From Pegea sp. RAD2-039 (lineage: Eukaryota > Chordata > Thaliacea > Salpida > Salpidae), in NCBI GenBank assembly GCA_034620365.1, contig JAQGEQ010000161.1, positions 496,001 through 560,000 on the forward strand: a DNA stretch of 64,000 bases, given 5' to 3'. The notes under the pieces were generated by a model. The model was not told where the DNA came from. It saw nothing but the letters and a program-made list of their open reading frames with translations, and searched no databases. Shown here one piece after another: positions 800 to 58,530 of the stretch. Within the stretch, counting starts at the first letter, position 1, and each line of letters begins with the position of its first letter. The position numbers and the translations under genes were made by a program.

Positions 800-1139
800 A
801 TTTAAAGTTTCTGCTAAATAAAACCAAATTAATATAATGTACAGATGCAAACCAATTAAAAATATATAAATTATATGTTGTAAGTATTAAATTTAAAATC
901 CAAACAACTTATTTATACAAATTACATGTGCAAATAAAATTAGTCTTATTAATCTCAAATTGTCAAAATATAAAATGTTTTTAAATATTTTTGTCAAAAA
1001 CAAGAAATATGGCAAAAGTAATTACATGCTTCAAAGTTCACTCTTCAAAAAATTAATCAAACAATTTAAAAATCTCATTCATGCATTCATGGTGTAAGCT
1101 GTTTAAATGGCTTTTATAATAAATTTAGCGACAGTCAGG

Positions 1140-6930: not shown

Positions 6931-6939
6931 GCTGCACCA

Positions 6940-7445: not shown

Positions 7446-7655
7446 CTTCAGTGTGTAACATTACGTAGTAGTAAACATTTTACGTTTTACATTTAATTTT
7501 TTTACGTTTATTTCACAAATTAAATTTGTACAACTATCTATTACACTTATTAGATTCAAAACTTTATTTTGACGATAACAATAAGTCTGAAAATAAACTA
7601 CATGACTTATTTCTTCAATGTGTAACTTCAAACTATATTAAGATTTTTAACAGAT

Positions 7656-8531
7656 CATTAAGCAAAATGATTGATCGAAAAAGTAAAACACATTATAGAA
7701 ATGATTATCCAAAAAACTGAAAAAAAAAACTGATTATAAGTTTTTAATTGAAAAGCTAATGCAGGTAATGGTTATTCTAAATTATTTATTTTCAATTTGA
7801 CTGATATAAAGTTCATTAATAAATTTGCTTGTAAAAACTTTTCAAGTTAAACTTCATTAAAACTATTGAGTTTTAATTACCTTCAAGGAAAAACTAGTAG
7901 TCTTACTAGAGTTGCCAAATATCGTTTAAAACTAAAATATTGCTAAACATCAGATTACTAAACAAAGATTTTAACGTCAAAGTCTTCATAGTAATCTACA
8001 TCTATTTGAAATAATCCCTACTTGCAATTTTATGGGTTCAAAATGTTGAGCTCTCTGTACCATTCTAAATTGTTGAAGTATTTTATTATTAAATGTAAAA
8101 CTTTTCACTAATTACCTTCTTATAAGTTTTCTTTGACTACTGGTAGATAAAATAACCCAAAGAACCAAACACAAAACATCAATGTAAAATTATCATTAGA
8201 AGTTTATTTATAAACGAAATGCTTATATAGAAAACTTTTAGAATCTTAATAAAATCTTGTATAACTTTACTCAATACACTTGATTCTATTTAACCAACTA
8301 CATAAAAACTTTCTCTTAGGAGGCTGGATGACTTTAGTGAACTAAAAACTTATTTAGACAGATTTGGTGGCTTAATTTGAATCAATTTCTACAAGTAATA
8401 CTAAAAAGCTTTACACTCGGGGATTGATAGTGGTAAAAATTGAATATCCTGTTTAATGTGTTCCCAAACTTATATTTTTATACGAGTATGATGTTTTAAA
8501 GAGGTATACTTTTATACAAGCAGCTGGCTGA
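7656..8531 (+). repeat. Left arm of an interrupted inverted repeat flanking CARNMT1
   Basis: Two segments of this arm recur in reverse complement on the other side of CARNMT1: 7656-7816 matches 13332-13183, and 8286-8531 matches about 12086-11848. Identity is high, with small indels such as an extra A-tract near 7723. The intervening 7817-8285 has no partner on the right, where a LINE sits instead. The element carries no protein signature I recognise and is probably a non-autonomous repeat present twice in opposite orientation. Confidence 0.75.
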
Positions 8532-8713
8532 ATAATTGCAGCATTCTTCTTAGTAACTTTGACTACCATGATTATCTTTAAGACAACTTTCTTCATGTAA
8601 GTTTTCTTGCTGAAATATCTAGTTTGATTTTACTAATTTGTTTTTCGGTAGAAACGATCACTCTGTGTCAAGCTAAGAAAAAGTATATAGACAAAACACA
8701 AATTAGTTTGGAC

Positions 8714-11153
8714 TTATGAAGAATCAGTTTGTAGTTTTTGACAAACAAATAAGCCACAGTCATATTCATACTTCAACATCGATAACTTGTTTTCTGTATA
8801 AGTTGAATTTGTCCAAGTAGTTTTCTGCAGAAAATGTAGAAATAGGATTTAGGTTTAACAAAATCATTTTTATCTTTATTTTATGATTTAGAAATTGTAA
8901 AAACTAAAAGTCTACAGTAAAAATAAAATGATTATTTTGCTGAATGAAGGGTCACGCAACTAACCAAAATTTTGAAGCCAATTTTCGGTAAAGTATCGAG
9001 CAAGTCCTCATAAGATAATTCGATTGATGGTTCATTATTTATACTAGAAAAATGGTAAAGTAAAGGACCAAGGTTTACTAAAATACCTCCAGGCTTTAAA
9101 ATAAAGAATATTTTTTCCAAGTAGGTGATAATATTGTGTGCGGTATCAAGGAAGAAACAACAAGCCACACAATCATACTCATCTATAAAAAAATCTGTAA
9201 GAAGAGACTTATGTCTCTGAAACAATCTTACTTGCATTATCAGAGATTTCTAGAAAGTCGCCAGCAAACATTTGAAAACGATCTTTCTGTGGTAGGTCAT
9301 CTGGAAAGACATCCGGAAATTTGACTAGTCTTGATACATCTTGCCACTTTTTTACATTACATCGTTGATCTATCCAAGGGTGGATCGTAAATTGATGGAA
9401 GTCTGTTGCTGAGCTTCCGACTGAGCTGCAACCAACTTTAAAATAACCGCTTTCCAACTCACTTATAAAATATTATGTATAAATATAATTTAATGATAAA
9501 CTAACTTGTTTAAAATATGATTTGATACAAATAACATATAGAGGCTAAACTCATTTCCAATGCTAAAATAACCAAGTCGAGCCAGTTCCCAAGCCAAGCG
9601 ACCTAATCCACATCCAGGGACATAGACTTTGATTATTTGATGCTGTTTATATAATCAGCTTCAATTAGACAATCGGCATTTACCAAAAAAATAATTATTA
9701 TCCTCAAAATATGTCAATTCAGATTTGACTGTAATCACTACAAACCTCTGGGTCATCTAAAGGTTTGTATTTTTGTATCTCTTTTATAATTGGATTATAA
9801 CAAGCTTGTCTCTCACTAGCACCTTCAGCTGACCAATCACGAGCGATTTGTTTCAAAGTTGATTTAACTTTTGAGATATCGAAAGAAGTGTGAGTTGGAA
9901 AAGTCTAAAAAGCAACGACAATATTAAGTTTTGAGTAATCAAATGAATAAATGCCTATTTTTAAATTATAAAAAAATATCTAAAACAGAAAACTTGTTGC
10001 AAGTTAATTATTCTCATCAGAGTTGAAGTAAAAGATAGAAAAGTTTAGAGTTTTTTAAACAATTGTCTCTAGCTCTAATCAAGCTTTAATAAAGTCTCTT
10101 ATAAGTGATGTACCAATACACAAAACTTTGTGTAGTAATTTTAAAACTGATTTTTGATTTTTTAAACTGACTATTATAATCAGCTCAACGATTTTCTGAA
10201 AATAATTATCACCAGAGGATTGTTTTAGGAGATTAAAATATTGATGTTTAAAACTAAACAAAACTGTGAGATACAAAACATGTTGAATAGATGAAGATAA
10301 TGATATGAAGTAAAAACCAAAAACGTTAATAATTTGTTAAAACAAATTATAATAATCATGCATAAAAGAAATGAGCAGAAAATTATACTTTTATAAATTT
10401 GGAAGTATGTCTAGAGATTATTTAAATTTTCTCAAAGTTTAAGCAGATTGGTTTTAACGGATTTAAAAAAATCCATTTAAAAAAAGATTTCTAAAATTTG
10501 AGCAAACTTAATTAAATATATAAAGTATAATTAATAAAGAATAAAATATAAACCTTGGAGGTGTGAGTAAAGGCAGACGAATAATTGAGAGCTTCAATAA
10601 CTAAATCTAAATAAATCTGGTTCCTTTCCACACAAGTTTTGATTTCTTCTAAATGATTTAGATGATTAGGAAGCAACTCTTTATGCTTTTGTGAAAGATT
10701 TGAATAGTTAATTTCAACATCTTTTAAACTTCGCAAAAAATCTTTTCTAAAAAAAATAAATATTTTGGATATTTAGCTGGTCATTGATATTTTTGATAAT
10801 ACAATTTTTTACAACAATAATAATAATTTTTGATAAATATTTAACATTAAATAATAACAATGTGATAATAAAGTTGAATTAGATAAGTCATATTTTAAAA
10901 CTTCAAAATAATTATAAATCAATTAAAAAAACTTTATTTAATTAAGGTTAAGCAAAGAAAACAGTTGGCTAAAATAGTTTTAGTCAAATTTTAAAGGTTA
11001 TATCTAATACTATATACAATTTTTCAAATAATTTTACTTATAAGATTCCATAGCACTTATACATTTCTTAAAATGGCGACCTTCTTCATCTTCTTCACTT
11101 AAAGTGTTTATTTGTTCAGGTGAAGTTAAGGCAGCATCAAAGTTTGATTCCAT
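8714..11153 (-). CDS. CARNMT1: Carnosine N-methyltransferase (N2227-like SAM methyltransferase)
   Basis: Complete gene of seven exons (minus): 11153-11038, 10746-10554, 9904-9746, 9642-9506, 9425-9232, 9194-8965, 8824-8714; 1140 nt, 379 aa. The enzyme uses S-adenosylmethionine to methylate carnosine to anserine; related family members methylate histidine in peptides. Visible family blocks in order: an acidic N-terminus with EEDEEGRHF, an LLPNHLNHL helix, [11 protein letters not shown] with CYNPIIKEI, the SAM motif [14 protein letters not shown] (about 164-177), [41 protein letters not shown] (about 280-287), [26 protein letters not shown], and a last exon [20 protein letters not shown]. Intron phases match throughout and an in-frame TAG upstream supports the ATG. 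The intron between exons 5 and 6 (9195-9231) is only 37 nt. The gene lies between inverted-repeat arms (7656-8531 and 11848-13332). Confidence 0.95.
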
Positions 11154-11847
11154 TCTTAGACAACAAATATTTTGATTGGATTTTTCTATATTTATCTACA
11201 AAAACATAATGTAAAACATTAAGTATAAACTAATTTAAACTTAAATTATTTTTTTACAAAAGCATGGTTTCTAAGATTTACAAAAAAAATAATAAAAGAA
11301 GCAGCCAAAAAATGTTCATAATTTACACATAACCTTAACAAATTTAAAAACATACTACAATACCAAGAGAACTTTATAACTTCAATAAAATCCCCTAAAC
11401 TAAGCCTAAGTTATATAACGAAGCATATATAATAAATAAAAAAGAAAGAAAGAAATTATATAATTCTGTTTAAGTATATAAATCTTTTACTATAATGAAA
11501 AATCTATAAAATAACTTGATATCCATGATTTAAAGGCAAAATAAGTGATACAATAAGTAACTTCATTTGTTTAACACCTGTTAATTTTGTTGCTTTGAAG
11601 AAAGACTTAAGTGCCTAAAGTTTTAAGTTGTATTTAGCTTTATTTTTGATTATTTAAAATTCAGTAAAAAGTATAAAAAGTCATTTAAGGCAACTATACT
11701 CGTGTTCAATAGCTTGATTGGTAAAAAATACAAATAAAGATGAAACCCTACATAAATAGAGAAAAAATAAAAAATGATTATTATCAAATTGTAAAAGTTT
11801 CAGCAAACAAACAATTTTCCAGAAAATTTCAGTGAAGATACTAAGAA
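11154..11847. other. Upstream spacer of CARNMT1 with a 61-bp segment shared with EndoU intron 3
   Basis: Mostly AT-rich spacer. Bases 11489-11549 are nearly identical to 15589-15649 (and to the duplicate about 4.2 kb further), which lie at the 3' end of intron 3 of the EndoU genes. No open frame of note; the CARNMT1 promoter should be near 11160-11250. Confidence 0.6.
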
Positions 11848-13332
11848 AAGCAGCTGGTTGTATAAAGGTCTTTAAAACATCATACTAGTATAAAAATATA
11901 AGTTTGGGAACACATTAAACAGGATATTCAATTTTTACCACTATCAATCCCCGAGTGTAAAGCTTTTTAGTATTACTTGTAGAAATTGATTTAAATTAAG
12001 CCGCCAAATCTGTCTAGATAAGTTCTAGCTGCCTAAAGTCATCCAGCCTCCTAAGAGAAAGTTTCTATGTAGTTGGTTAAATAGAGTTAAAGTTTAAAAG
12101 TTATCCTAAAAGTAATAAAGTTATCCTGAAAAGAGCACCTCTCGCTAACACGCATTCTCACAAATAACATCTATAAAATTAGAAATACAGAAAGCAAGAG
12201 ATGTAACACATCGTATTTCAGTAGCCCTCAAAACATATTTATTTATTTATTACAATAAATGTGAAGGAGGGTGCCTAAAGAGAGCACCTCTCGCTAACAC
12301 ACAGTGAACAATTACATAGAATTATAGTAATATTTAAAAAAACGAAAAATTTACAGTTTAGAAATGTCAGTGTTGACAATATTATAACGGTTCAACTTCT
12401 TCTTGAACGACGCGAGTGATTCTGAATTGACGATGTCTGATGGCAGCTGGTTCCATGTACTAATTTTGTGGTATGAGAAAAAAATTCAATCTGATAAATG
12501 TACAAGGTGATATGGGCTTATTAAGATGTAATGTGTGTTGTCTGAGTTGGTACAACTTGAGGGAAGGACTGATGGAAAAGAAGTCACCAAACTGAAGGTC
12601 AATTAAATCGTGGATAATTTTAAAAATAAGAATTAAGTCGTATTTAGTTCTTCGAATTTCTAAAGTATCTAAATTGAAGAAGCTGAGACAATGCTTATAA
12701 CTATCGTATTCAATATTAAGTTTCATGCATACCAATCTCGTAAATGTGGTCTGAACAGACTCGAATTTTTTGACATTACTAACTTGATATGGCATCCGTG
12801 CACTGACATTGTATTCAAGAATTGGACTTACGTACAATTTGAAAAGATTGATAACAAAGCATGGGTCCTTAGAATTAAAGGTCTTTATAATAAGGAAGAC
12901 AAGGTTGATTGATTTTCTAAAGATTTTGAAAACATAGTTGTGCCATTTAAAGTCAGATGATAGAGTAATGCCGAGGTCTAGGACTGAATATACTCGTTGA
13001 ATGATAAATTCATTGATGGAACTTTGGTTCAAGGATTTTGTAGTTGGTTTACGAGAAAGAGTTATAAGTTCAGACTTTGTGGGCTGGATTCTGAGCTGCC
13101 AATTCGTAGACCAGTTTTCTACAATGTTTAGTGCAGTTTGAAGTTTTAAAGGATTATAAGATAATAGTTTGATGTCATCTGTATGAACTTTATATCAGTC
13201 AAATTGAAAATAAATAATTTAGAATACAACCATTAACCTACATTAGCTTTTCAATTAAAAACTTATTATCAGTTTTTGGATAATTATTTCTATAATGTGT
13301 TTTACTTTTTCGGTCAATCATTTTGCTTAATG
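11848..13332 (-). repeat. Right arm of the inverted repeat flanking CARNMT1, split by a LINE
   Basis: Reverse-complement counterpart of 7656-8531. The matching parts are 11848-12086 and 13183-13332. Between them lies a 5'-truncated LINE on the minus strand whose 5' junction falls immediately after the GTTCAT that ends the shared segment at 13183, so the repeat was present before the LINE inserted. Confidence 0.75.
12105..13182 (-). mobile_element. 5'-truncated CR1/jockey-type LINE
   Basis: The minus-strand frame 13032-12460 reads the region downstream of the reverse transcriptase catalytic motif of a non-LTR retrotransposon: VLDLGITLSSDFKWHNYV, then IIKTFNSKDPC, LYVSPILEYN, ESVQTTFTRLVC-KLNI, YDSYKH-LSFFNLDTLEIRR and LKLYQLRQHTL. 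Upstream in the same element, after the junction at 13182, comes the DDIKLLS part of the catalytic box. The same ordered blocks occur in the copy at 59529-60990. The 3' part is rearranged: the terminal GCGAGAGGTGCTCT block appears twice (around 12290 and around 12140), each flanked by sequence that is contiguous in other copies. It is truncated and frameshifted, so non-autonomous. Confidence 0.85.
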
Positions 13333-13710
13333 AATGCTTTATTTTTATAAAAGAACAGTTAAAGACCATTTTAGAAAAAATATTCTTGATTTTTTTGTGT
13401 TGGTGAAATCTGATATTCAGCGGCATGTGAAAAGCTCATATAATTGCTTGCAAGAATTATAAAGATTTCATTAGAAAAATACTTGCGAAAAATGAAAAGG
13501 TTTCAGAGTTTGAAACTTTGCATTTTTACTTAGGCATTAATGTTTTCTGTTTTAACCTTTTGTAATTTTTTTGTCAAATTTTTACCTATTGAGCGAGATG
13601 TTAAGAGTTGTTAGGTGGAACAACTGGTGAAGTTTAATAATAATAAAAGTAAATACGATTTACAATTCAAAAAGCTCTTTTCAAAAGTAACCGTTCAAAA
13701 GTAACAATAT
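13333..13710. other. Spacer, nothing recognised
   Basis: AT-rich sequence between the inverted-repeat arm and the EndoU array. The frame extending over 13238-13426 (minus) begins here but is formed largely by the repeat arm. Confidence 0.4.
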
Positions 13711-14046
13711 AAACTTTTCGATTTTTTTTCTAAAATACTCAAAGTCAAGTTTACCTATTACTTCCGAGTATTTACTTATATTATTACGTAGTATTTACTT
13801 TAAGCTTTGAGGGATATAAGCTTAATGAAAGAAAATTAGTAGTCGGTAAGCAAAATAAAACATAACTCAAAGATTTTCTGAAGAAAACTATTATTATCGA
13901 CTAGTTATCATGATTAGCTATTTCAAATTCATTGTTTTTATCAATAATTATTTCGAGTAAGTAATTTTAGATTCAAATGTAGAATACTAAAAACATTTTT
14001 GATAAGCTTTGAAACCATTATTTTTTGTAATTTGCTGATTTATATA
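13711..14046 (+). pseudogene. Remnant of a third EndoU duplication unit, gene body lost
   Basis: Bases 13711-13987 match the 5' flank of EndoU copy A (14051-14327) at a constant offset of 340. From about 13986 the sequence instead matches 16342-16400, which lies downstream of the EndoU stop codon. The whole coding region and all its introns (the equivalent of about 14328-16341, 2.0 kb) are missing, with a few bases (AC/ACTA) shared at the junction. It is therefore an older unit reduced by an internal deletion. It differs from copies A and B by scattered substitutions, so it is older than the A/B split. Confidence 0.75.
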
Positions 14047-14360
14047 AACTTGACTTTTCGATTTTTTTTCTAAAATACTCAAAGTCAAGTTTACCAATTA
14101 CTTCCGAGTATTTAATTACATTATTAGGCAGCATTTACTTTAAGCTTTGAGGGATATAAGCTTAATGAAAGAAAATTAGTAGTCGGTAAGCAAAATAAAA
14201 CATAACTCAAAGATTTTCTGAAGAAAACTATTATTATCGACTAGTTATCATGATTAGCTATTTCAAATTCATTGTTTTTATAAATAATTATTTCGAGTTA
14301 GTAATTTTAGATTCAAATGTAGAATACTTTTATATTAAAAGTCTTTTTTTTTTCAATTAG

Positions 14361-16217
14361 ATGGTTATGTACGTAAAAAAATTTCTGTTAATTATTGTTT
14401 TGTTCTTTAATTATCAGGATAATTTAGTGAAATCAGGTAATTCAGGTAAAGTCACATTTATTAAAATGTTTCTTTTGTGATTTTGATTTGTCAAAAAATG
14501 TTATTTAAAAAAAGATGCAAAAAAATTCAAGAAAATTAGTTTTTTAGAAACTACAAGGCTCACAGCACCAATTTATTATCTAAATATAGTGGTATTTGTT
14601 GTGATCTGCTTTTAAAATTCAGTAAATTAATTTGAAAATTGATCTGACGTTAAGAATACGAATCAGTTTTTAATTTTTTTCCATTTAAACTTTGCCTATA
14701 ATAGAATTCAAGTTACATTTCATTCAGTTAATTAAGTTTACTTCAACTTTTCTACAGATGCAGGCGACTTTTGGAACCACTGGCCAATTCAAGATCTAAA
14801 CTGGGATAATTGTCAAGATTTTATAAAAAAACCAATGTAATGATAATGATTATTTCATTATTAGTCAAAAAAATACAGTTGAAAAAAGTTAAAAATTTTT
14901 TTGATGTAAACAAATTTGACAAGTTTTTTAGTTACGAAATAATTAGATGAAATAATTACAAAATTGTTTCTATTTTTACCAATAAACTGTCTAAAATACT
15001 TTGCTATCCTGTACTACATTAATGCCATAGACTATTTTAATCAGCAGAATTACAAAAATCAATTTCAAAAATTACAACGAAAATAAATTCTTCAAACTAT
15101 TTATTGAAATCATTGAAGATTTTGACAGCTTAGAACCAACCAAAGAAAGAACTAAAGAATTCCTACAAGAGTTTGTTGAAACAAAATCGGGAAAGTTATT
15201 AAGAGAAATATTGGGAATTGAAGGTTAGATACAAATCTTTTTTTATAAAATATGATACATGTATGATATAGATACGCAGGACATCTGTAAATATTTAGTC
15301 TTGTTCCGCAGCTTTTTTGAAAACTCTAGAGTAGATGAGAAAAAGTAGTCTGGTATAAAGTATACGCTGCTAGTCACTTTTATAAAAGTTATAAATTTTG
15401 AAAGCTTGCCACAAAAATTTGCTTTGAAATTTTTGCAATTTTTTTTACCAACTGGATCACACTTACTTGAAAAAGCTTGCAGAATGCAAGATTAGAACTT
15501 TCTAAAGAAGTGTTTAAATTTAGTAAAAAGCTCCTATATTACTGGATTAGCCTGCAATTTAAAAATAAATAACTATTTGATCAACTATTTTACTATAATG
15601 AAAAATCTATAAAATAACTTGATATCCATGATTTAAAGGCAAAATAAGTAATACTTCAGACCTCATTCGTAAACTGGATGAGATATGGTTTGGAAAATCA
15701 TCTAATAAAAGCATGTAAGTTGTAAAAACTATTTTTGTACGAGTGAAATCAGATAATATTTTTTTTCAAGTTATTTCAACTTAATATTTTTTATTCTTTG
15801 AAGATTTCGTCATGTTTTTGTTGGCGATGAAAATGAGAAAAAACTCACAGGGTACCATAACTGGATAACATTTAATAGATTAAACTCAAACAAAATGTTG
15901 AGTGATATCTCAGTACTTAAATCAAATACAAATGTGAGTTAAACAACTTCTTGATCGATAAAAATATTTAATACAGATACTTAAGTTAAAAAAAAGTCTA
16001 CTGCTAGTATGTAGAAGATCATAGATATAGTTTAAACAAATTATTCATTATGAAAGACAAACGTTAATGACTTCTTTTAATTCTACAGCCATTAATTTGT
16101 GAAGTTACTTTTAAAAGGAATAACAAAACAAAGAATAGATCAACTATATTAGTAGGAAAAGATCCTGCTTATGAACTAGCGGTTTTCACTTGGTGCTATT
16201 TTCAGGAAAAGTATTAA
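14361..16217 (+). CDS. Small secreted EndoU (XendoU)-family endoribonuclease, copy A
   Basis: Six exons: 14361-14445, 14758-14836, 15045-15223, 15660-15714, 15804-15933, 16089-16217; 657 nt, 218 aa, all GT-AG with matching phases (1,2,1,2,0). EndoU enzymes cut RNA at uridylates, leaving 2',3'-cyclic phosphates. Residues 1 to about 17 form a signal peptide (two Lys, then FLLIIVLFF), so the product is probably secreted. The N-terminal lobe is short (DFWNHWPIQDLNWDN; FFKLFIEIIEDF; LIRKLDEIWFG). The catalytic lobe shows RHVFVGDE (H136), LTGYHNWITF (H151) and TKNRSTILVGKDPAYELAVF (K191), the expected His-His-Lys set with near-normal spacing. At 218 aa it is shorter than XendoU (about 290), the loss being mainly N-terminal. 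Exon 1 has two in-frame donors (after 14436 or 14445) and exon 3 a CAGCAG acceptor (15045 or 15048). A near-identical copy lies 4,214 bp downstream. Family assignment is firm; activity is inferred. Confidence 0.88.
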
Positions 16218-16879
16218 TTTTACATAATAATTAAGAATTAAATATTTTGAGAGTTTTATATGTTTCAGACAAAAAAAATCATTTTCAAAGTTAACTGTTA
16301 AACATACAAACGATAACTTTATTTTAGCCTAGTTTTATAAAACTAAAAACATTTTGATAAGCTTTGAAACCATTATTTTTTGTAATTTGCTGATTTATAT
16401 TTCATATAAATTAATTTATTATGAATTTTTTGACACTAAAATCATATGCAAAAATTTGCTTATCTTTTAGTTTAATAATCTATTGGTGGCTTTGCTAGAA
16501 AATAATAATGTATTCAATTACTTTTTGCCTATATAGTTTAGCAGAAATAACCAGAAAGTTTAAATTCTCGCTAAGAATACGGCCTGATGCTTTTAGTTCT
16601 AAACAAAAGTTATCTTCGACTTTACTTCATTTATTTTAAACTAATTATTTTGGCAGTAATAAATGCGGTATTCAGTATGGAGATGGGATGAAAGGTGAAA
16701 TAATTGTGTGTAAAAGGAACAATAGCCTGACAACTGCTTATTTCTCTATCAAGGAGATTAAAGGTCACAGTGAGTTTTAAATCGCACAATTCAAGCAATT
16801 TCTTATATATCAATTATTCACATAACAAAATATTATTATCATTCCTCTACAAAATCTGAGATCTTAGGAACTATAATCT

Positions 16880-17200
16880 TTAATACCTGTATCTGATCGT
16901 ACCTTTAGACCAAGTGGTTAGTCCAATGACCTGGGACAGTGACATTGAGGACAAGGGATTGTTGGTCTTATTTCAGACTTTCCTTGTCCTAAATGAGATC
17001 ACATCTATCTACACTTTATTGTCACACATTTTTCTTCCTGGGTTTACTCCTACATCAACTACAAGGTAGTGGAACTATTTACCCATTGTTGAGAAGACAC
17101 TTTCCGCACTCTATAAGTGACGTAACAAAGCGCGACAAATCCATTCATGCAAAGCTCTTAGCAACCACTCGTCCAATCTTTAATTTCTTTTAATATTCTT
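16880..17200 (+). repeat. GC-richer repeat-like block inside the duplicated unit
   Basis: Stands out from its AT-rich surroundings and contains TGACCTGGGACAG at about 16927, which also occurs at 58507 next to the dispersed repeat at 58311-58487. An open frame of 66 codons (16993-17193, plus) has no family features and appears in both tandem units only because the DNA is duplicated. Probably an old interspersed repeat. The unit B equivalent is 21094-21414. Confidence 0.45.
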
Positions 17201-17689
17201 TAAGTCAATAATTTAGATTTTTATAATAAAAAGATTAAAGTATTTATCATTTTATATTATTTCTGAGTTACCAATAAGTCCCTTTCTTTTAATATTGTTA
17301 TGTTACCATTAATTTTTTTCTTATGATATTAAAAATCTAAATATGAATAGAATTAAATATCTTAATTGCCTTAAGAAAGAACATCCAAAGAACTTTAGTG
17401 TAATTTTATCATTTTAATTTTTTCTTACATTTTATTTTATGTAATTAAATGGTTTAAAAGCCAAACTTTGAGTTTAATCATTACTAACCATCATTAAAAT
17501 AAAAACTTTGATGAAAAACAAATAAGCTGTTTGATAAATAAGCTGAACTTCAAAGAAACATTTAAGAATACTTTACAAGTGGTTTCTAACAACTAATTAA
17601 ACCTTAAAAAAGTCAATCAAGTTTGAACTTCTAACATTTTGACCGGAGTAACTATTTGAAATATTACTCAATTGATTTATTCAGTTTAA

Positions 17690-18250
17690 TTTGCTTAATC
17701 AAACTTTTACAAGTTGATGAGCTTGTTTGGGGCAAACTTAGCTGATAACTGTCCAGCTTGATGTAGTCTGAAAAGAGAAAGTCTAATTCAATTTAAAACC
17801 CGAAAAGTTCATTGATCTTCAGCATCAAGGAGCCATTGAAGGATTGCATTGAATCTGATTCATCTTTAAGGTTGGTCCCTAAATTGACCTTTGGGACATT
17901 CTTCTTCTTTTAGAGATCTTTGTATCAGACTAGAGATGGAGTAAGACTTTTGAGGTTTTCTTCTGAGGGCTTTACAAAACAAGAATCCCAACTATGGAAG
18001 AGTCGAAACCAGTTGCTCCTTTTCAATCTCCAGAAATACTTTCTTTAACTTCTTTGATAGATAAGAAGCAAACTCCTGAAGATTTTTTGAAATCTTCCTT
18101 GAACATCTCTATCATCGTCAGAAACGAATTCTTTCTTAGGTCCCGGATCTGTTCTTGAGGCTCGAAAACAAATCAATTTGGAATCTTTTCTATCCAGTAG
18201 CTTTTTCTTCAGTTTATTTAAACCCACTTTCAGCCAAATACTACAAAAAA
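17690..18250. other. GC-richer block of unknown nature at the end of unit A
   Basis: Higher in G+C than its flanks, with short open frames on both strands: 53 codons on plus from 17996, and a Lys/Arg-rich frame on minus from 18311 to 18045. The plus frame begins MEESKPVAPFQSPEILSLTS. I do not recognise either. It may be an eroded gene fragment, a retrocopy or an interspersed repeat. It recurs at 21904-22464 in unit B. Confidence 0.35.
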
Positions 18251-18284
18251 AAACGATAAAACAATTTGGACTATAGAGAAAAAT

Positions 18285-21200
18285 TAAAATACTCAAAGTC
18301 AAGTTTACCAATTACTTCCGAGTATTTAATTACATTATTAGGCAGCATTTACTTTAAGCTTTGAGGGATATAAGCTTAATGAAAGAAAATTAGTAGTCGG
18401 TAAGCAAAATAAAACATAACTCAAAGATTTTCTGAAGAAAACTATTATTATCGACTAGTTATCATGATTAGCTATTTCAAATTCATTGTTTTTATCAATA
18501 ATTATTTCGAGTTAGTAATTTTAGATTCAAATGTAGAATACTTTTATATTAAAAGTCTTTTTTTTTTCAATTAGATGGTTATGTACGTAAAAAAATTTCT
18601 GTTAATTATTGTTTTGTTCTTTAATTATCAGGATAATTTAGTGAAATCAGGTAATTCAGGTAAAGTCACATTTATTAAAATGTTTCTTTTGTGATTTTGA
18701 TTTGTCAAAAAATGTTATTTAAAAAAAGATGCAAAAAAATTCAAGAAAATTAGTTTTTTAGAAACTACAAGGCTCACAGCACCAATTTATTATCTAAATA
18801 TAGTGGTATTTGTTGTGATCTGCTTTTAAAATTCAGTAAATTAATTTGAAAATTGATCTGACGTTAAGAATACGAATCAGTTTTTAATTTTTTTCCATTT
18901 AAACTTTGCCTATAATAGAATTCAAGTTACATTTCATTCAGTTAATTAAGTTTACTTCAACTTTTCTACAGATGCAGGCGACTTTTGGAACCACTGGCCA
19001 ATTCAAGATCTAAACTGGGATAATTGTCAAGATTTTATAAAAAAACCAATGTAATGATAATGATTATTTCATTATTAGTCAAAAAAATACAGTTGAAAAA
19101 AGTTAAAAATTTTTTTGATGTAAACAAATTTGACAAGTTTTTTAGTTACGAAATAATTAGATGAAATAATTACAAAATTGTTTCTATTTTTACCAATAAA
19201 CTGTCTAAAATACTTTGCTATCCTGTACTACATTAATGCCATAGACTATTTTAATCAGCAGAATTACAAAAATCAATTTCAAAAATTACAACGAAAATAA
19301 ATTCTTCAAACTATTTATTGAAATCATTGAAGATTTTGACAGCTTAGAACCAACCAAAGAAAGAACTAAAGAATTCCTACAAGAGTTTGTTGAAACAAAA
19401 TCGGGAAAGTTATTAAGAGAAATATTGGGAATTGAAGGTTAGATACAAATCTTTTTTTATAAAATATGATACATGTATGATATAGATACGCAGGACATCT
19501 GTAAATATTTAGTCTTGTTCCGCAGCTTTTTTGAAAACTCTAGAGTAGATGAGAAAAAGTAGTCTGGTATAAAGTATACGCTGCTAGTCACTTTTATAAA
19601 AGTTATAAATTTTGAAAGCTTGCCACAAAAATTTGCTTTGAAATTTTTGCAATTTTTTTTACCAACTGGATCACACTTACTTGAAAAAGCTTGCAGAATG
19701 CAAGATTAGAACTTTCTAAAGAAGTGTTTAAATTTAGTAAAAAGCTCCTATATTACTGGATTAGCCTGCAATTTAAAAATAAATAACTATTTGATCAACT
19801 ATTTTACTATAATGAAAAATCTATAAAATAACTTGATATCCATGATTTAAAGGCAAAATAAGTAATACTTCAGACCTCATTCGTAAACTGGATGAGATAT
19901 GGTTTGGAAAATCATCTAATAAAAGCATGTAAGTTGTAAAAACTATTTTTGTACGAGTGAAATCAGATAATATTTTTTTTCAAGTTATTTCAACTTAATA
20001 TTTTTTATTCTTTGAAGATTTCGTCATGTTTTTGTTGGCGATGAAAATGAGAAAAAACTCACAGGGTACCATAACTGGATAACATTTAATAGATTAAACT
20101 CAAACAAAATGTTGAGTGATATCTCAGTACTTAAATCAAATACAAATGTGAGTTAAACAACTTCTTGATCGATAAAAATATTTAATACAGATACTTAAGT
20201 TAAAAAAAAGTCTACTGCTAGTATGTAGAAGATCATAGATATAGTTTAAACAAATTATTCATTATGAAAGACAAACGTTAATGACTTCTTTTAATTCTAC
20301 AGCCATTAATTTGTGAAGTTACTTTTAAAAGGAATAACAAAACAAAGAATAGATCAACTATATTAGTAGGAAAAGATCCTGCTTATGAACTAGCGGTTTT
20401 CACTTGGTGCTATTTTCAGGAAAAGTATTAATTTTACATAATAATTAAGAATTAAATATTTTGAGAGTTTTATATGTTTCAGACAAAAAAAATCATTTTC
20501 AAAGTTAACTGTTAAACATACAAACGATAACTTTATTTTAGCCTAGTTTTATAAAACTAAAAACATTTTGATAAGCTTTGAAACCATTATTTTTTGTAAT
20601 TTGCTGATTTATATTTCATATAAATTAATTTATTATGAATTTTTTGACACTAAAATCATATGCAAAAATTTGCTTATCTTTTAGTTTAATAATCTATTGG
20701 TGGCTTTGCTAGAAAATAATAATGTATTCAATTACTTTTTGCCTATATAGTTTAGCAGAAATAACCAGAAAGTTTAAATTCTCGCTAAGAATACGGCCTG
20801 ATGCTTTTAGTTCTAAACAAAAGTTATCTTCGACTTTACTTCATTTATTTTAAACTAATTATTTTGGCAGTAATAAATGCGGTATTCAGTATGGAGATGG
20901 GATGAAAGGTGAAATAATTGTGTGTAAAAGGAACAATAGCCTGACAACTGCTTATTTCTCTATCAAGGAGATTAAAGGTCACAGTGAGTTTTAAATCGCA
21001 CAATTCAAGCAATTTCTTATATATCAATTATTCACATAACAAAATATTATTATCATTCCTCTACAAAATCTGAGATCTTAGGAACTATAATCTTTAATAC
21101 CTGTATCTGATCGTACCTTTAGACCAAGTGGTTAGTCCAATGACCTGGGACAGTGACATTGAGGACAAGGGATTGTTGGTCTTATTTCAGACTTTCCTTG

Positions 21201-22498
21201 TCCTAAATGAGATCACATCTATCTACACTTTATTGTCACACATTTTTCTTCCTGGGTTTACTCCTACATCAACTACAAGGTAGTGGAACTATTTACCCAT
21301 TGTTGAGAAGACACTTTCCGCACTCTATAAGTGACGTAACAAAGCGCGACAAATCCATTCATGCAAAGCTCTTAGCAACCACTCGTCCAATCTTTAATTT
21401 CTTTTAATATTCTTTAAGTCAATAATTTAGATTTTTATAATAAAAAGATTAAAGTATTTATCATTTTATATTATTTCTGAGTTACCAATAAGTCCCTTTC
21501 TTTTAATATTGTTATGTTACCATTAATTTTTTTCTTATGATATTAAAAATCTAAATATGAATAGAATTAAATATCTTAATTGCCTTAAGAAAGAACATCC
21601 AAAGAACTTTAGTGTAATTTTATCATTTTAATTTTTTCTTACATTTTATTTTATGTAATTAAATGGTTTAAAAGCCAAACTTTGAGTTTAATCATTACTA
21701 ACCATCATTAAAATAAAAACTTTGATGAAAAACAAATAAGCTGTTTGATAAATAAGCTGAACTTCAAAGAAACATTTAAGAATACTTTACAAGTGGTTTC
21801 TAACAACTAATTAAACCTTAAAAAAGTCAATCAAGTTTGAACTTCTAACATTTTGACCGGAGTAACTATTTGAAATATTACTCAATTGATTTATTCAGTT
21901 TAATTTGCTTAATCAAACTTTTACAAGTTGATGAGCTTGTTTGGGGCAAACTTAGCTGATAACTGTCCAGCTTGATGTAGTCTGAAAAGAGAAAGTCTAA
22001 TTCAATTTAAAACCCGAAAAGTTCATTGATCTTCAGCATCAAGGAGCCATTGAAGGATTGCATTGAATCTGATTCATCTTTAAGGTTGGTCCCTAAATTG
22101 ACCTTTGGGACATTCTTCTTCTTTTAGAGATCTTTGTATCAGACTAGAGATGGAGTAAGACTTTTGAGGTTTTCTTCTGAGGGCTTTACAAAACAAGAAT
22201 CCCAACTATGGAAGAGTCGAAACCAGTTGCTCCTTTTCAATCTCCAGAAATACTTTCTTTAACTTCTTTGATAGATAAGAAGCAAACTCCTGAAGATTTT
22301 TTGAAATCTTCCTTGAACATCTCTATCATCGTCAGAAACGAATTCTTTCTTAGGTCCCGGATCTGTTCTTGAGGCTCGAAAACAAATCAATTTGGAATCT
22401 TTTCTATCCAGTAGCTTTTTCTTCAGTTTATTTAAACCCACTTTCAGCCAAATACTACAAAAAAAAACGATAAAACAATTTGGACTATAGAGAAAAAT
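18285..22498 (+). repeat. Tandem duplication, unit B (4,214 bp)
   Basis: Second copy of 14071-18284. At 18496 it has C, the base also found in the older remnant (TCAATAATTA at 13941-13950), whereas unit A has A at 14282. The derived change therefore appears to be in unit A. Unit B ends at about 22498 where unit A runs into unit B; beyond it, unrelated sequence begins. Confidence 0.95.
18575..20431 (+). CDS. Small secreted EndoU (XendoU)-family endoribonuclease, copy B
   Basis: Six exons at the copy A positions plus 4,214: 18575-18659, 18972-19050, 19259-19437, 19874-19928, 20018-20147, 20303-20431. I see no coding difference from copy A; the predicted 218-aa product, with its signal peptide and the His136, His151 and Lys191 catalytic set, is the same. 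The 5' flank (about 290 bp above the ATG) is also duplicated, so both genes should have the same proximal promoter. One base differs about 79 bp upstream of the ATG (C at 18496). The same alternative donor and CAGCAG acceptor are present. Confidence 0.88.
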
Positions 22499-22571
22499 TA
22501 CAGACAGTTTTTTAATTACATATATAAGTTTTTTAAAGCGGAAATAGCACCTAAAATCGTATATTATCTAA

Positions 22572-22751
22572 TATCGGACCTACAGAAGGGATAGTTCAGC
22601 ACACGCTTCTCTCCACTATCATCAAATCTCATGTACAGAAAGGAAGAAAGTATTTTAGCCAACAGACAGCTTCCTTGTCAACTTCCTTCCATCTACTGCT
22701 TCGGCCTATAAAGTTCAGTAAAAATATTGGAAATTAGTATTATGTTGTCAG
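22572..22751 (+). repeat. Dispersed repeat, inverted partner of 58311-58487
   Basis: About 180 bp, near-identical in reverse complement to 58311-58487, about 36 kb away. It starts at ATCGGACCTAC and ends near ATGTTGTCAG. It begins about 75 bp after the end of tandem unit B. It has no coding signature on either strand and is probably part of a longer interspersed element, because the 58-kb copy continues into further repeat-like sequence at 58488-58530. Confidence 0.75.
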
Positions 22752-23558
22752 GTTGAAATCGAATTTAAGTCACAGAAAAAAACAAACCCATAAATTGCTA
22801 TCTGTAAACATTTATCAACTTCAAATGTCACACAAATAAACATTTTAAAAAAAGTTATCAAATTATTTTTATTAGAGATTATTCTATAAAAAAAAATCGT
22901 TCTTACTCTAAAACCGCTGATGCTGACGACTTCTAAACATCTTTAATAGTTTTTAGTTCTTCATAAGTAGTGGACTCACTACTAGAAAAATCTTAAAAAC
23001 AAATCGATTGTAATAAGTTATTTTTAATAAATGGAAAAGACTATTGGTTGAAGTTTGCAAGAAATGATATTTTCATTAGCAAATGATTATATAGATAAAA
23101 TCATAAACACTTTCCTTAAATTCTTCTATTTTTAGTTGTAACTTGTTATACCTCTTGTCCTTCCTTTTCATGTCAAACTTTTAAGTCCTTAAAGGCTGGT
23201 TATTTAAAATTAATCCAAGTAAAAGCTTTAATAACACTAAATCAGCTGATAATCTTTTCAATGAAGTAATAATAGATCAGAATATTGCATATTCTATTAC
23301 CTCTTTTAAAAATAAGTTTAATATTTTGTGGATAAATGATAAAATCTGACATTTCTTTTGCTGTTTTCTTATTTTTCTACATAATTTTGGTTGTTTTTCA
23401 GATAATTTTGTTATTTCTCTGCAGCCACACTGTTCTGTGTTCACTTTGAGAGTTATATCATTAATTAGTTGCAGTCATGCCTTATTACATTTACAAATAC
23501 CAGATTATGAAGCATATTAAATTTTGATTTATAAACTAAGATGTCTGATTTACTTTTT
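22752..23558. other. AT-rich spacer
   Basis: No gene, RNA or repeat recognised between the dispersed repeat and the SINE. Confidence 0.4.
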
Positions 23559-23980
23559 TTCATAGTGTAGTGGTTATCACGCCCGCCTAACATTCAAAAG
23601 GTCCTAGGTTCAAGCCCAGTTAGACATATATTTGAAAAATGGGAAGTCCATAAAAACCCTGATAGAAGGGCCTTGTAGGTATAGTTACTGACAGCATTTC
23701 TTGGAGACACAAAACTCTAAATTTAAAGCAGGAGTTGGTCTCGTAGGTAAGTCATCACTATAATCAGTGTTGTTCTGGAAGCTCCTGCGGCGCTAGCTTA
23801 GCTGTATAAGTCCTTCTGTTCCGCTGCATATCTTGTTGGTGAAGAAAGTTGAATCTTGCTACATAGGCAGCAACTGATCTCGATAATTTCTGTCCTCATA
23901 TATATATGCAATTCTCAGCCGAAGCAGACCATATCATTGTTATTATCAATCCTGATTTGAAACCACTAAAACAAAATATT
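23559..23980 (+). mobile_element. tRNA-Val(AAC)-derived SINE
   Basis: The head matches a metazoan tRNA-Val(AAC) from the D arm on: TAGTGTAGTGGTTATCAC (A box), the anticodon context CGCCTAACATT with anticodon AAC, AAAGGTCCTAGGTTC and CAAGCCC (B box). The 5' acceptor strand is lost. It is followed by a tRNA-unrelated body of about 350 bp (AGTCCATAAAAACCC, GGAGTTGGTCTCG, GCTCCTGCGGCGC, TCTGTTCCGCTGCAT, TTCTCAGCCGAAGCAGA). Other pieces of the same body lie at 2766-3045, 26198-26315 and 59440-59528, so this is a family. It is not a functional tRNA, because the acceptor stem cannot pair. Confidence 0.85.
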
Positions 23981-25690
23981 GTTGCATAACAAGTCAGTTG
24001 CTTTAAATTAAGATTATGGCAAAAACAAGTTTTCTAATGTTAGTGTTCATGAATTTTGTTAAAAGATTAAAAGACTATCATAAAAAGGTTATGTTTCAAA
24101 CTCTTTTAAAACATAGATAAGAAACTTTGCCAGAAAAAAAGTATCAATTTATGTAAAATAATTATCAAATATCTCACCTGCTAAAAGTTTTGCTTCATCT
24201 TGTAGAAAGATAATTTGAAATCTTGAAGAAACTTTAGAGAAGAACAAAAACTTCAGAAATATTTAGCTTTAAAAATATATATTTTTAATTATTCATAAAT
24301 AAATATAAAAACATAATTATAAATAATTAATCCTTTCTAAATAAACATAAACTTACAAAGATGAAAAAAGGTTGTTATTAAAAAAATTGACTGAATAATA
24401 AATCTAAAATGATAATATTAAGAGTTTAGATAATAAAACAACTTCAGTTAGTTTTATCATAACTATTTTCAAGGTTTCATATATTATCAAAAGATTCAAT
24501 CTTTTGTAGAAATTTCGAACACTACTTTAGGAAAATATTATTAAAAAAAAAAAGAAAAATGAGTCAAAGTAGAATAACAACAGCATAATCTAATATTTTG
24601 TAGAACTTTAAATATAAAAACAAAACATTACGCCAAAAATGGCGTTTTCAATTCTGTATGATAAAATATATAAGTATTTATCTATACATACATAATAATT
24701 AAAAATTATAGAACTTTGCTGAAGAAATGTTAAAACAACTTTTGTAAGAAATTATAATTAAAAAAAGGCTAGGCTATGAAATGCTGTAAGTTTTTTGTTA
24801 CATTAATATTGTTATTAGTACAGTTTTAAAACGTTGAAAACTTTTAATTCTTGATTTATGTGACTTTATTATTCAACTTTCGATTATTCTGAAAATTTAT
24901 TCAACATTTCAAAGTATAAAATAATGTAAAGAATAAAAACTCTAAAAATATTTTACATATTCAAATTTTAATGTGATGTATAAATGATACTTTCAAAAAT
25001 TGAAACCTAAAATATAATTACTGCTTTTATTTTGTTATTATAAAATAGTTTGAGAAATTGGTATATTTTGTTAAACATGCTTTTTCGAACATAAGCGGCA
25101 AATAGCTGGATTAATGTTTATTTTATTTCAAATTGTATCATATCTAGTACATTACCATACAATTTTTGGATTTAATAAGATATAGAACTTGTTTAACTGA
25201 ATAAAGTTAATAGCAACTAAGTAATAAGCAATTTTTAAGTAGATTTTTAAAGTTGTTAAAATTTCAGAAGTTTAGTAATTAAGCCACAACTTTTTAACTT
25301 TTTAACGATTAAAAAGTTCTCTAAGAAAAGTAGAAATTTTGCGAAATGTTTTCTTCATATTGAAAAAAATTGGTGTTGAGCCTTGTTTTAACCATCAACT
25401 GTGTTTTTACACCCTCTATATTGCTCCGTATGAGCGAATCAAGGCTAATCATGAAAAAAATGAAAAAATGACCCTGGAAGAGATATTTGCAAGTTCACGG
25501 ACATTCTGATAAACCTTTGCAACAAATGGTAGAGCTACTGATTGGATTTATATTAACAAAGACACAAATTTTGCAAATATCAGCACAAGCACCCATTCAT
25601 GAGCGATAGCTTATAGAGAAAGATTTTAAAAGAGATGAAGGCCTGGATTTAATAAAAGATAACCTCTGATAACCGTGAGCCTGTCACATA
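23981..25690. other. AT-rich spacer with an unclassified block near 25380-25690
   Basis: Mostly AT-rich and stop-filled. Bases 25380-25690 are somewhat richer in G+C and may be the degraded upstream part of the adjacent LINE, but no protein block is readable there. Confidence 0.4.
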
Positions 25691-26140
25691 ATACGACCAT
25701 ATTCTGATTTTTAAAATTATTCACAACCTAATTGATCTTCAGTTTGATGACTTTTTCTCCATTAGTCCCTCCCTCAAGTTATATCAACTTAGAAGACATA
25801 AATTACATCTTAATAAGCCCACTCCACCAGCTACGTTAACCAGATTAAGTTTTTTCTCATACCGCACAATCAGTACATAGAACAATCTGCCATCAGAAAT
25901 TGTCATGTCAAAATCACTTATGCTGTTCAAGAAAAAGCTGAATTGTTATAATATCGCCAACATTGCCATTTCTAAACTGTGAATTTTTCTCTTTTACAAT
26001 ACTATGATTCTGTGCAATTCTTCACTGTCATATGCTTTTTAGTTTACACGTCAAATAGATCTAATTTGTGAGAATGTGTGTTAGCGAGAGGTGCTCTCTT
26101 TAGGCACCCTCCTTCACATTTATTGTAATAAATAAATAAT
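25691..26140 (+). mobile_element. CR1/jockey-type LINE, 3' end fragment
   Basis: Begins near TACGACCATATTCTG, which corresponds to the KYDLI-IFK coding block of the copy at 60476, and continues through ISPSLKLYQLRRH-like coding sequence and the 3' UTR. It ends with TGTTAGCGAGAGGTGCTCT, GGCACCCTCCTTC and a TAATAAATAAATAA terminal repeat. Frames are broken. The end is the short-repeat type usual for CR1-like elements rather than poly(A). Confidence 0.85.
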
Positions 26141-26197
26141 GTTGTAAATTAGGAGTGTCTAGAAAGTAAAAAAAAGACCGAGAAAAACCTTTGTTAT

Positions 26198-26315
26198 GTT
26201 ATGCAATATGGTCGGCTGCCAAATTATCCCCAGCTACTTTATAATCGTGATTATAATGGTGTCATCCGCATAGCCGTTCTCGGCTGAAGCAGATCCCCAT
26301 TATAGATGAAATCAG
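26198..26315 (+). mobile_element. SINE 3' tail fragment
   Basis: Contains TTCTCGGCTGAAGCAGA, the counterpart of TTCTCAGCCGAAGCAGA at the 3' end of the SINE at 23559-23980, with weaker similarity on either side. It lies just after the LINE 3' end at 26140. Confidence 0.5.
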
Positions 26316-26389
26316 TCTGTACTTTTTGAAGAAAAGGATATGAATACTAATTGTCTGATACAAGCTCTTACAACATCTTCTAAATACGG

Positions 26390-26620
26390 CCACAATTGGT
26401 GCTTCTAACTAGCTACAGCGAACTTCAAGAGTAAAGATGTCATGATATATTACGAAACAGATCTCAATCAGATGACTCTTGGTTATTCATCATTGTTGGA
26501 GCTATTGGAGTTGTGTAACATTCTCAAAAATTTAAGATTTCACAAAAAGGTAGTTGTCAGCAGTCTAGAGACTTATCACTTCAGTCAGGTTTACTGCAAT
26601 TAGAGCTATTAATATAGATC
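26390..26620 (+). pseudogene. Unidentified short coding-like stretch
   Basis: A plus frame runs open for about 60 codons from about 26427 to the TAG at 26604 with fairly normal codon variety (MIYYETDLNQMTLGYSSLLE, then LLELCNILKNLRFHKK). I do not recognise it. No splice context or start is convincing, and the surroundings are repeat remnants, so a decayed element or gene fragment is the likeliest explanation. Confidence 0.25.
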
Positions 26621-29600
26621 CCTAGAATTTGATGAAATCAGTGCCACTAGCGCCCTTAAATTAAAGCAAAGGACTATCATCTGGAGCTTTGATATAAATA
26701 AATAATCTCCTCAGTGAAAGGTTGTTTTAAAAGTTGCTAATGATTAGGAAGATGATGCCAAGGGTAAAAATATTGCGATGTTAGCAGTGAAAATGCCTCG
26801 TCAAGATTGAGTAATTTCAAATCGAATCCTTGTCAAAATTTTCTGTATATTTTCTCGCTGATGACCTGAAATACCATCAGTTGAAATTAAAGGTATTTTG
26901 GCGGGATATTTCTCAGTATATTCAAAATATTATCTCAAATACTCCTGTAACAGCTTCAAATTCCTTTAATTAATAATCATTAAGTTGTGAAATAAAATAT
27001 TTTTGTCTTTTCCGTAGATTAAACAACAAAATAGTAATAATAAATTAAAATACTTTAAAATGTTTTTAAACTAAAAGTACTTTTTTCTATGTTTGCATTT
27101 TTTATCTTCAAATAATAGCATCATTAGATAACAAACTATTATTGATTAATAACTTTATTCGATTTCCTAATTCATTTTATTCTTCATTATTTAGTTTAAA
27201 GTATCATCTAACAATAAACAATTTTTTGTTTGAATAAAAAACTAAATGTTATAGATTTGGTTTTTACTGACATATTGTCAAAATTCAGCAAGGGAATAAA
27301 AATAGTTAATCATAACAGAAGAAAGACTTTAATAAAAACTACTTCATAATAGTTTTATTTTTTTATTTCAATAATTGCGAAGGAGGAAATATTGTTTAGT
27401 TTAAGTCGTTTTGTCTACAAATTTTTTGACTTCATTTTGTATTGAGATTAAAAATTATATTTTAGCTCCTGCGTAGTGAGCCAGCATCAATTTTCAACAA
27501 AAAACTTATAGATAAATAAAATTAGAATTATATCAATCTGTTTGTTTAATTTCGCTGATTAAACATACATTTTAAATAATAGAATCCTTAAATTTAAATA
27601 GATAAGCTCTTTAACGAGCTTTATGACCTGTTATTAATTCATACAATTTTTAAACAAAGAACTTTTTATTTTATTTCTATCGAAAATAAATAATTTTAAT
27701 ATCAAGATTATAGAAAATGTGTTTAAAATAAAAATCGTATGGCTTGAACCATGATTAATCAATTTATCTTTCTACAAAAGTTATAAAGAATTACTTATCT
27801 TGTAGTAGAGATCAGTATTTAAACAATTTTTATCTATCAATTAATCATCATCTACATACAAATACCAATGAACTAAAAATTATGAAAAGGTAGACTTAAA
27901 AAATGATTTTATTTCCTGATAAGAAAATATCTGTTTGAAATACGCAGTACTGATAATATGTAAAAAATATAAATCATTATCGAAATCACACTTTGTTTAT
28001 AGATGTTTATAATCAGATAAATAAATAAATATAAGTTTCATATTTGTAATAGACAATAAAATGATTTTATTAGTTTCCACTAATAGGCTTTATGTTCAAA
28101 TAAGGATAACTAAAAGAAGATAAAACTAAAGTTTATCAACACAATTTTGTTATTCTAAAATTATAGTAGAAGATTACATTAACAGAATTTTGTAAAATAC
28201 AAATTACTAGAAAAGATAAATCTTTTAATAGCATCAAACTTAATAATTACAAAATCTCTGAATTATGAATAGTTTTAGTAATTATAAGCATTAACTTAAG
28301 GTTAATTCTTAGATAAATTGAATAAAAAAAACATTTTGACGATAAATAGTTATTATCAGTTTAACTTTCGCATTAGTTTTATAAACAATACTTATAAACT
28401 TAAACCACAATTAAAAAACAACATTTATTTTTGACTCAAAATGTTCGTATGGTTGTTTTAAATAAGTTTTATTGTAGCTAAATACTGAAATGAAAGTTTA
28501 TTTTAATACTGTTCATACTCTAATGAGAAATCAACTTTTTGGTTTATCACTTTCAATTTGAGCTCAGAAAACATTAAAAGCATTTTCAGAACTAAAAAAA
28601 TCGATGTTTTTCTATTACCTTTATCTTACCTATTGTAAAGTACATTAAAACTACAGAAAGTTAAATCTTTTCTTTATAATCTTGTAAATTATATTTAAAT
28701 TGATTACGTCTTATTTTTTATAATTATGTGATCAAATACTTGAAGCTATTCTTTGTTTAAAAATGTTTAATTATTACTATTTAATATAAAATCAAAATTC
28801 GTGATATTATAGTTTCATAATATCTTTTAAACTGACTATTTAACATTTTCAATTCAACGAAAACTGCCGAATACATCTAGAAAAAGATTAAAGGAATATT
28901 CTATTTAGTATTAAATATTTGTACAACAATTTTAAGCTTCAACGATGTTTACCTGAGTTCTTACAGATTTATTTATCAAAAATGTTTAATAAATAAATTT
29001 AGATAAAAAATCTTTTTTTTTATCACCTGTAAACTAAGTAAGTTTAAGTTTAGATATACACAATATTGTATAAATAACTTTTAATCTTATTGACATGTTT
29101 AATAGCTCTTATAACTTTGTTATTGTTTTGTTTTTAGTGAAATAAAAGATTTTTTTGGGTAAAACTATTTAGTATAGAATAATTAATTCAAATAAAGCAA
29201 CCAATAAAACTTTTAAAATAATCTTTAATTTCAAAGAACAAAAAAGCAAAAATATTTTCTAAATAAGGTTTAAATATACAACCAACACAAAAATATTTCA
29301 AGTCCTTTAAATTTGAATATATGTTTAATCAAATGCGATAATAATTCATTGTTGATATTGAACAAATGTGTTTTTAATAAAGATCGAATATACTGAATCT
29401 AAAAGATCGATTAACTTGGTAACTAACTCTCTCTATATACTTCCTGTTTGACTGCTGTAATGAAAAAATACTTGATTAAAATTTAATCAAAGTTAAATAA
29501 ACAAATAAAATTGAAAAGTTGCGAATATTACAAACTGTAGCTAGAAAATTGGTAACCTTTTCAAACATCCTAATAAAGATACTAATACTATGTAGCTATA

Positions 29601-58300: not shown

Positions 58301-58310
58301 TATTTGAACT

Positions 58311-58487: not shown

Positions 58488-58530
58488 GTTTGGTGACACG
58501 GCCCAGTGACCTGGGACAGATATGTATAGA

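What the first reader, a model, noticed from the sequence alone, without database searches (positions are those of the whole stretch)
14071..22498. Very recent head-to-tail duplication of a secreted EndoU ribonuclease gene
Two 4,214-bp units, each with a complete six-exon gene and its proximal 5' flank, differ at only one base that I could find (14282 A, 18496 C). Near-identity including introns means the event is young or has been homogenised. Doubling a secreted RNase gene with its promoter suggests selection for dosage or a growing local array. The older remnant at 13711 has C at the variable site, so unit A carries the derived base. If the organism is a parasite, secreted RNases could act at the host interface, but that is speculation.
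Basis: seen in the sequence. Interest (0 to 1): 0.72.

Follow-up and report, generated by a model that had tools for sequence, protein, structure and literature searches.

The report
Young tandem copy of secreted RNase
An animal genome carries two almost letter-perfect, head-to-tail copies of a gene for a probably secreted RNA-cutting enzyme; the duplication is ordinary, but its gene family keeps multiplying in this genome and this branch has swapped out an amino acid that the human enzyme needs for its calcium switch.

Summary
Each unit holds the same intact 254-aa gene with a XendoU domain and a probable signal peptide; I model seven coding exons, not six. The older remnant is real: an earlier, about 3% diverged copy gutted by an internal deletion of about 2 kb. 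It has C at the variable site, so unit A is derived.

The own assembly (105.7 Mb) shows at least 15 EndoU genes on 8 contigs. Eleven fall in three young families: this pair, a four-unit array (98.0-98.9%) and five dispersed copies.

As an event the duplication is ordinary birth-and-death evolution. Dosage selection is unproven, and an assembly error cannot be excluded without reads.

The less ordinary part is the protein: the four short paralogue types that keep the catalytic His-His-Lys all carry Arg or Lys where human ENDOU has E284, a calcium-site residue essential there. I propose, untested, a calcium-independent EndoU clade.

The parts
14071..18286 (+). Unit A of the tandem duplication
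   Evidence: 1 mismatch in 4214 to unit B
18285..22500 (+). Unit B of the tandem duplication
18285..18286 (.). 2-bp overlap ('TA') at the A/B junction
14361..16780 (+). EndoU gene, copy A: coding exons 14361-14436, 14758-14836, 15045-15223, 15660-15714, 15804-15933, 16089-16210, 16657-16780; 254 aa
   Evidence: GT-AG introns, open frame; Pfam XendoU 78.1 bits, cut-off 32.3
18575..20994 (+). EndoU gene, copy B, same exons shifted by 4214; identical protein
14282..14282 (.). The only difference between the units: A here, C at 18496 and C in the remnant at 13942; 79 bp before the start codon
13713..14045 (+). Older remnant: 5' flank (13713-13988) fused to an intron-6 piece (13980-14045); exons lost
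   Evidence: 97.1% over 276 and 95.5% over 66 positions; edges
11485..11551 (+). 67-nt copy (98.5%) of the end of intron 3 (15588-15654); origin unexplained
15804..15933 (+). Exon 5 of copy A: holds R132 (human E284 position), H133 (H285), D138 (E290), H148 (H300)

Best explanation
A real, recent tandem duplication of a 4,214-bp segment, joined at two sites that share only 2 bp (end joining or replication template switching), produced two complete, identical genes for a small, probably secreted EndoU-family RNase. It is the newest event at a locus that had already duplicated and lost a copy, in a genome where EndoU genes repeatedly multiply and decay (birth-and-death evolution). Shown from sequence: the repeat, its junction, intact genes, the older remnant, the other EndoU expansions, and the Arg/Lys change. 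Inferred: that both copies are expressed; that the product cleaves extracellular RNA (digestion, or removal of foreign or shed RNA); that the extra copy raises dosage, neutrally or under selection; and that the short EndoU clade, having lost the calcium-site glutamate, works without the calcium switch.
For: 1 mismatch in 4214 and a 2-bp junction. Two identical open 254-aa frames, XendoU above cut-off. An older remnant at the same spot. A four-unit array on C81 at 98.0-98.9%, with a 92-93% piece of a unit end upstream; five copies on C102/C247, segments over 2 kb at 94.9-99.0%. Pooled pN/pS of about 0.23 (C81, six pairs) and 0.25 (four complete C102/C247 copies), pooled by me, suggest retained function in those families. 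No second full copy listed for 22501-26700 or 1100-5300. D179, H285, H300 and K343 positions kept in the four short types while E284 is R, R, R, K; the same columns line up in an independent HMMER alignment.
Against: No reads: the copy number is only what the assembly says, and a false tandem copy in a homozygous region would look the same. No expression data. An overlap of 2 bp or more is expected in 22% of random joins. The pN/pS values rest on 20 synonymous and 18 nonsynonymous (C81), 13 and 13 (C102/C247) pairwise differences that are not independent. The remnant carries 5 of its 8 variable sites within 18 bp, so its age is poorly defined. E284A abolishes human ENDOU activity, so Arg could equally mean a weak or dead enzyme. 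The control sample of this genome is too small to show that EndoU is special.
Confidence: 0.72

Rival explanations
1. Assembly artefact: two unmerged ends or haplotypes of one 4.2-kb unit were joined head to tail.
For: A false join has the same geometry as a true tandem copy; 0.02% difference would fit a homozygous or clonal line; no reads were available.
Against: No N at the join; no second full copy listed for 22501-26700 or 1100-5300, although only the best 40 candidates were scored and 5301-14070 was not queried; long contigs, C1 being 6.1 Mb; an independent older tandem remnant at the same place; a second EndoU array whose units differ by 1-2%.
Confidence: 0.17
2. An older duplication kept identical by gene conversion (concerted evolution).
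For: Tandem genes often convert; the remnant has a tight cluster of differences that could mark a conversion edge.
Against: Identity is uniform over introns and 1.5 kb of downstream DNA; the remnant next door is not homogenised; C81 units keep 1-2% differences.
Confidence: 0.08
3. The duplicated gene makes a weak or inactive EndoU-like protein and the duplication is neutral.
For: The human E284 position is Arg, and E284A abolishes human ENDOU activity (PMC11275989, passages); the paralogue model C26 has lost both His and the Lys, so inactive relatives exist in this genome.
Against: Positions D46, H133, H148 and K188 (human D179, H285, H300, K343) are kept in C44, C27, C248 and C247b although these are only 32-44% identical.
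Confidence: 0.25
4. Selection for higher dosage at a host interface, in a parasite.
For: Probable signal peptide and recurrent expansion of the family.
Against: Nothing here shows a parasite. Digestion fits as well: in Daphnia two secretory EndoU proteins were the only non-proteolytic proteins named among the spots in question (PMC2678069, passages).
Confidence: 0.07

Closest known systems
ENDOU / XendoU family (Pfam PF09412; human 9FTW, Xenopus 2C1W)
   Same: XendoU domain above the curated cut-off; catalytic His, His, Lys and the D179 position kept; probable signal peptide
   Different: 22.9% identity to human over 236 aligned columns; Pfam match starts at profile position 81 of 262; shortened N-terminal part; E284 position is Arg, E226 and D330 not kept
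Canonical EndoU genes of the same genome (C13, and C81 four times)
   Same: Same domain and active site; intron places near FEHVF/FRHVF, before the PN/PL stretch and before the last Cys stretch look alike by inspection
   Different: C13 has a somatomedin B domain, C81 shows similar Cys-rich exons by inspection; both keep E284 and E290; separated from the short group by a branch with 100/100 support
Daphnia pulex secretory EndoU proteins ERNA and ERNB (PMC2678069, passages)
   Same: Secretory EndoU-domain proteins of an invertebrate
   Different: Their sequences were not compared here
Ordinary young tandem gene duplications in birth-and-death families
   Same: Head-to-tail unit, microhomology-scale junction, decayed older neighbour
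   Different: Nothing in kind; three young expansions of one small family in one genome is the notable point

Membership tests
XendoU / EndoU family (PF09412) | Score above the curated cut-off | tested here: met
   78.1 bits against 32.3
XendoU / EndoU family (PF09412) | Catalytic His-His-Lys (human H285, H300, K343) | tested here: met
   All three kept in the aligned C44 protein; same columns
Calcium-activated eukaryotic EndoU (as proposed in PMC11275989) | Site-1 glutamate, human E284, essential there | tested here: not met
   Arg in C44, C27 and C248, Lys in C247b. So I do not file it as a calcium-activated EndoU; it stays in the Pfam family
Calcium-activated eukaryotic EndoU (as proposed in PMC11275989) | Site-3 aspartate, human D179, essential there | tested here: met
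   Asp in 9 of 9 aligned rows
XendoU / EndoU family (PF09412) | Cleavage of RNA at uridylates | not testable with these tools
   Needs the protein
ENDOU-type protein with somatomedin B domains | SMB domain before the EndoU domain | tested here: not met
   Only XendoU found in the 254-aa protein; C13 has SMB
Secreted protein | N-terminal signal peptide | tested here: inconclusive
   Charged then strongly hydrophobic N terminus; no predictor run
Real tandem duplication | Reads spanning both units and both flanks | not testable with these tools
   No reads held

The most novel reading that the evidence does not exclude
The duplicated gene belongs to a lineage of secreted animal EndoU RNases that escaped calcium control: the calcium-coordinating glutamate beside the catalytic histidine became a fixed positive charge (Arg or Lys) that stands in for the ion, so the enzyme is always on, and such enzymes are being multiplied in this genome.
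Probability: 0.3. Interest if true: 0.62.

Novelty: new variant of a known kind. Interest (0 to 1): 0.42.

Why it matters
The duplication alone is ordinary. The family gives a natural series inside one genome: canonical enzymes with the calcium-site glutamate, Arg/Lys enzymes with an intact active site, and one model with the active site gone. That makes it directly testable whether calcium switching is universal in eukaryotic EndoUs, as PMC11275989 proposes, and whether losing the switch goes with gene amplification.

Tried and rejected
Organism: a whole-genome search for COX1 found none; a spliced-leader pattern recalled from memory as rotifer-type found nothing; a literature look-up by contig number found nothing. 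Low GC, genome size and a chaperonin-like ORF made me think of rotifers, but this is a guess that I do not use.

No repeat of 150 bp or more (E up to 1e-20) was found in those two 20-kb blocks, nor in the 10-kb blocks of C13 and C248 and the 9-kb block of C26; C27 has one inverted pair. The C102 and C247 blocks do hold further short repeats, none over 1 kb. This is too little to call EndoU special against the genome at large.

Relatives elsewhere: scans of viral contigs and of prokaryote genomes found none by tblastn. NCBIfam gave no family.

Other nucleases: RNase T2 gave two matches at two places; DNase II gave none, with no control ringing either, so that is no evidence of absence. Both searches see genes exon by exon and can miss some.

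Literature: I saw no paper, in the listings shown, on an EndoU gene expansion or a calcium-independent animal EndoU. Searches listed 12 of 72 and 8 of 15 papers; only open-licence PMC papers are held. PMC6872716 was opened as a lead and is irrelevant (passages).

Full report
OBSERVATION. At an offset of 4214, 14071-18284 and 18285-22498 differ at 1 of 4214 positions (14282 A, 18496 C); the exact ends are 14071-18286 and 18285-22500, with a 2-bp overlap. It is the only direct repeat over 1 kb found in the window. A genome search with the unit listed 12 matches: two full copies and ten short pieces, three of the ten in this locus. One difference gives a divergence of 2.4e-4 (95% Poisson range 6e-6 to 1.3e-3). 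With an assumed rate of about 3e-9 mutations per site per generation (my assumption), that is of the order of 40,000 generations, with a wide range.

GENE. Pfam names only XendoU (78.1 bits, cut-off 32.3). The N terminus is charged, then strongly hydrophobic; a signal peptide is probable, but no predictor was run.

HISTORY OF THE LOCUS. Positions 13713-13988 match 14053-14328 at 97.1% (8 mismatches in 276), and 13980-14045 match intron 6 (16336-16400) at 95.5%. The simplest history, read by me from the edges printed, is an older tandem duplication ending in intron 6 ('ATAT' shared), loss of about 2 kb inside the older copy ('ACT' shared), then the young duplication ('TA' shared). Overlaps of at least 2, 3 and 4 bases arise at 22%, 8.6% and 3.2% of random joins in this window; each alone is weak, but together they fit microhomology joins better than recombination between long repeats. 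Remnant, A and B read C, A, C at the variable site, so A is derived. Against a clean clock, 5 of the remnant's 8 variable sites lie within 18 bp. An isolated 67-nt copy of the end of intron 3 lies at 11485-11551 and is unexplained.

GENOME CONTEXT. The window is C44:496001-560000 of a 105.7-Mb, 387-contig assembly, and the Pfam search listed 33 exon-level matches; a protein search added C26, and a second one with C27 added no new place. Grouped by place these are 15 genes: C44 two, C81 four, C13 one, C27 one, C248 one, C102 three, C247 two, C26 one. Such counts are lower bounds. The model of one C102 copy begins 27 bases from the contig start and is incomplete. C81 is a four-unit tandem array, pairwise 98.0-98.9%, with a 92-93% piece of a unit end upstream. 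C102 and C247 copies share segments over 2 kb at 94.9-99.0%. In C81, over six pairs, 20 synonymous and 18 nonsynonymous differences give pN/pS near 0.23; in four complete C102/C247 copies, 13 and 13 give about 0.25, the incomplete fifth copy being left out (counts, pooling by me). So two EndoU loci show young tandem growth and a third family shows dispersed growth. RNase T2 gave two matches at two places. My control sample is too small to say how unusual this is.

ARTEFACT. The searches with 22501-26700 and 1100-5300 listed no second full copy, only repeats; only the best 40 candidates were scored in each, and 5301-14070 was not used as a query. Retained haplotypes are thus unlikely here, but a false join in a homozygous stretch cannot be excluded. 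The remnant and the diverged array make a real, duplication-prone family the better reading.

PROTEIN. In human ENDOU, E284 belongs to calcium site 1; E284A and D179A abolish activity, E226A and D330A do not, H285A and H300A abolish it, K343A about halves it, and E290D raises the rate about fourfold (PMC11275989, passages). In an alignment of nine rows, C13 and C81 keep E284, E290, H285, H300 and K343. The short genes C44, C27, C248 and C247b keep D179, H285, H300 and K343, but E284 is R, R, R, K and E290 is D, E, D, S. The C26 model has lost both histidines and the lysine, and reaches no Pfam family; its exon edges are unchecked, as are those of the other paralogue models. Short and canonical groups are split by a branch with 100/100 support, although placement inside the short group is weak and long branches meet. 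HMMER aligns the same columns independently. [quoted passage not shown] this clade is an exception at the level of sequence. I infer, without experiment, that a fixed positive charge replaces the ion. The sober alternative is a weakened enzyme. An active site kept in four gene types that are only 32-44% identical favours activity.

FUNCTION. Secreted EndoU proteins are known in animals (PMC11275989 Discussion). In Daphnia two secretory EndoU proteins were the only non-proteolytic proteins named among the spots in question (PMC2678069, passages). A digestive or extracellular RNA-degrading role, with higher dosage, is my preferred guess. No parasite role is supported.

VERDICT. The interest lies in the repeated growth of EndoU genes in one genome and in the calcium-site change of the duplicated protein.

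Noticed in passing
L042, L029-L032 = G000:C81:30001-76000; units from 41927, 48269, 54614, 60958: Four-unit tandem array of a canonical EndoU gene, about 6.3 kb a unit (the last shorter), 98.0-98.9% pairwise, with a 92-93% piece of a unit end upstream at 40593-41206.
   Followed up: yes
L036-L040 = G000:C102 and C247: Five copies of another short EndoU gene in segments of several kb at about 95-99%, in both orientations within each contig, near LINE fragments.
   Followed up: partly
L041 = G000:C26 near 798526: EndoU-like gene model without the catalytic histidines and lysine: a likely pseudo-enzyme, not recognised by Pfam.
   Followed up: partly
window 25690-26139: LINE 3' end with 39 further listed matches at 95-99% (all but one at 98-99%; 40 of 3380 candidates scored), so a recently active element. 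An older relative lies inverted at 12239-13194, so LINE pieces bracket the array.
   Followed up: partly
window 11485-11551: Isolated 67-nt, 98.5% copy of the end of intron 3 with sharp edges; origin unknown.
   Followed up: no
window 13775-13792: Five of the eight variable sites between the old remnant and the units fall within 18 bp, perhaps a conversion patch or a multi-base mutation.
   Followed up: no
window 22570-22759 and 58302-58490: Inverted pair of about 190 bp at 97%, the first arm starting 70 bp after unit B.
   Followed up: no
window 584-886, 1143-2084, 8935-9472 (minus strand): Neighbouring genes: a chaperonin-like ORF, a TRIC channel and a carnosine N-methyltransferase.
   Followed up: no
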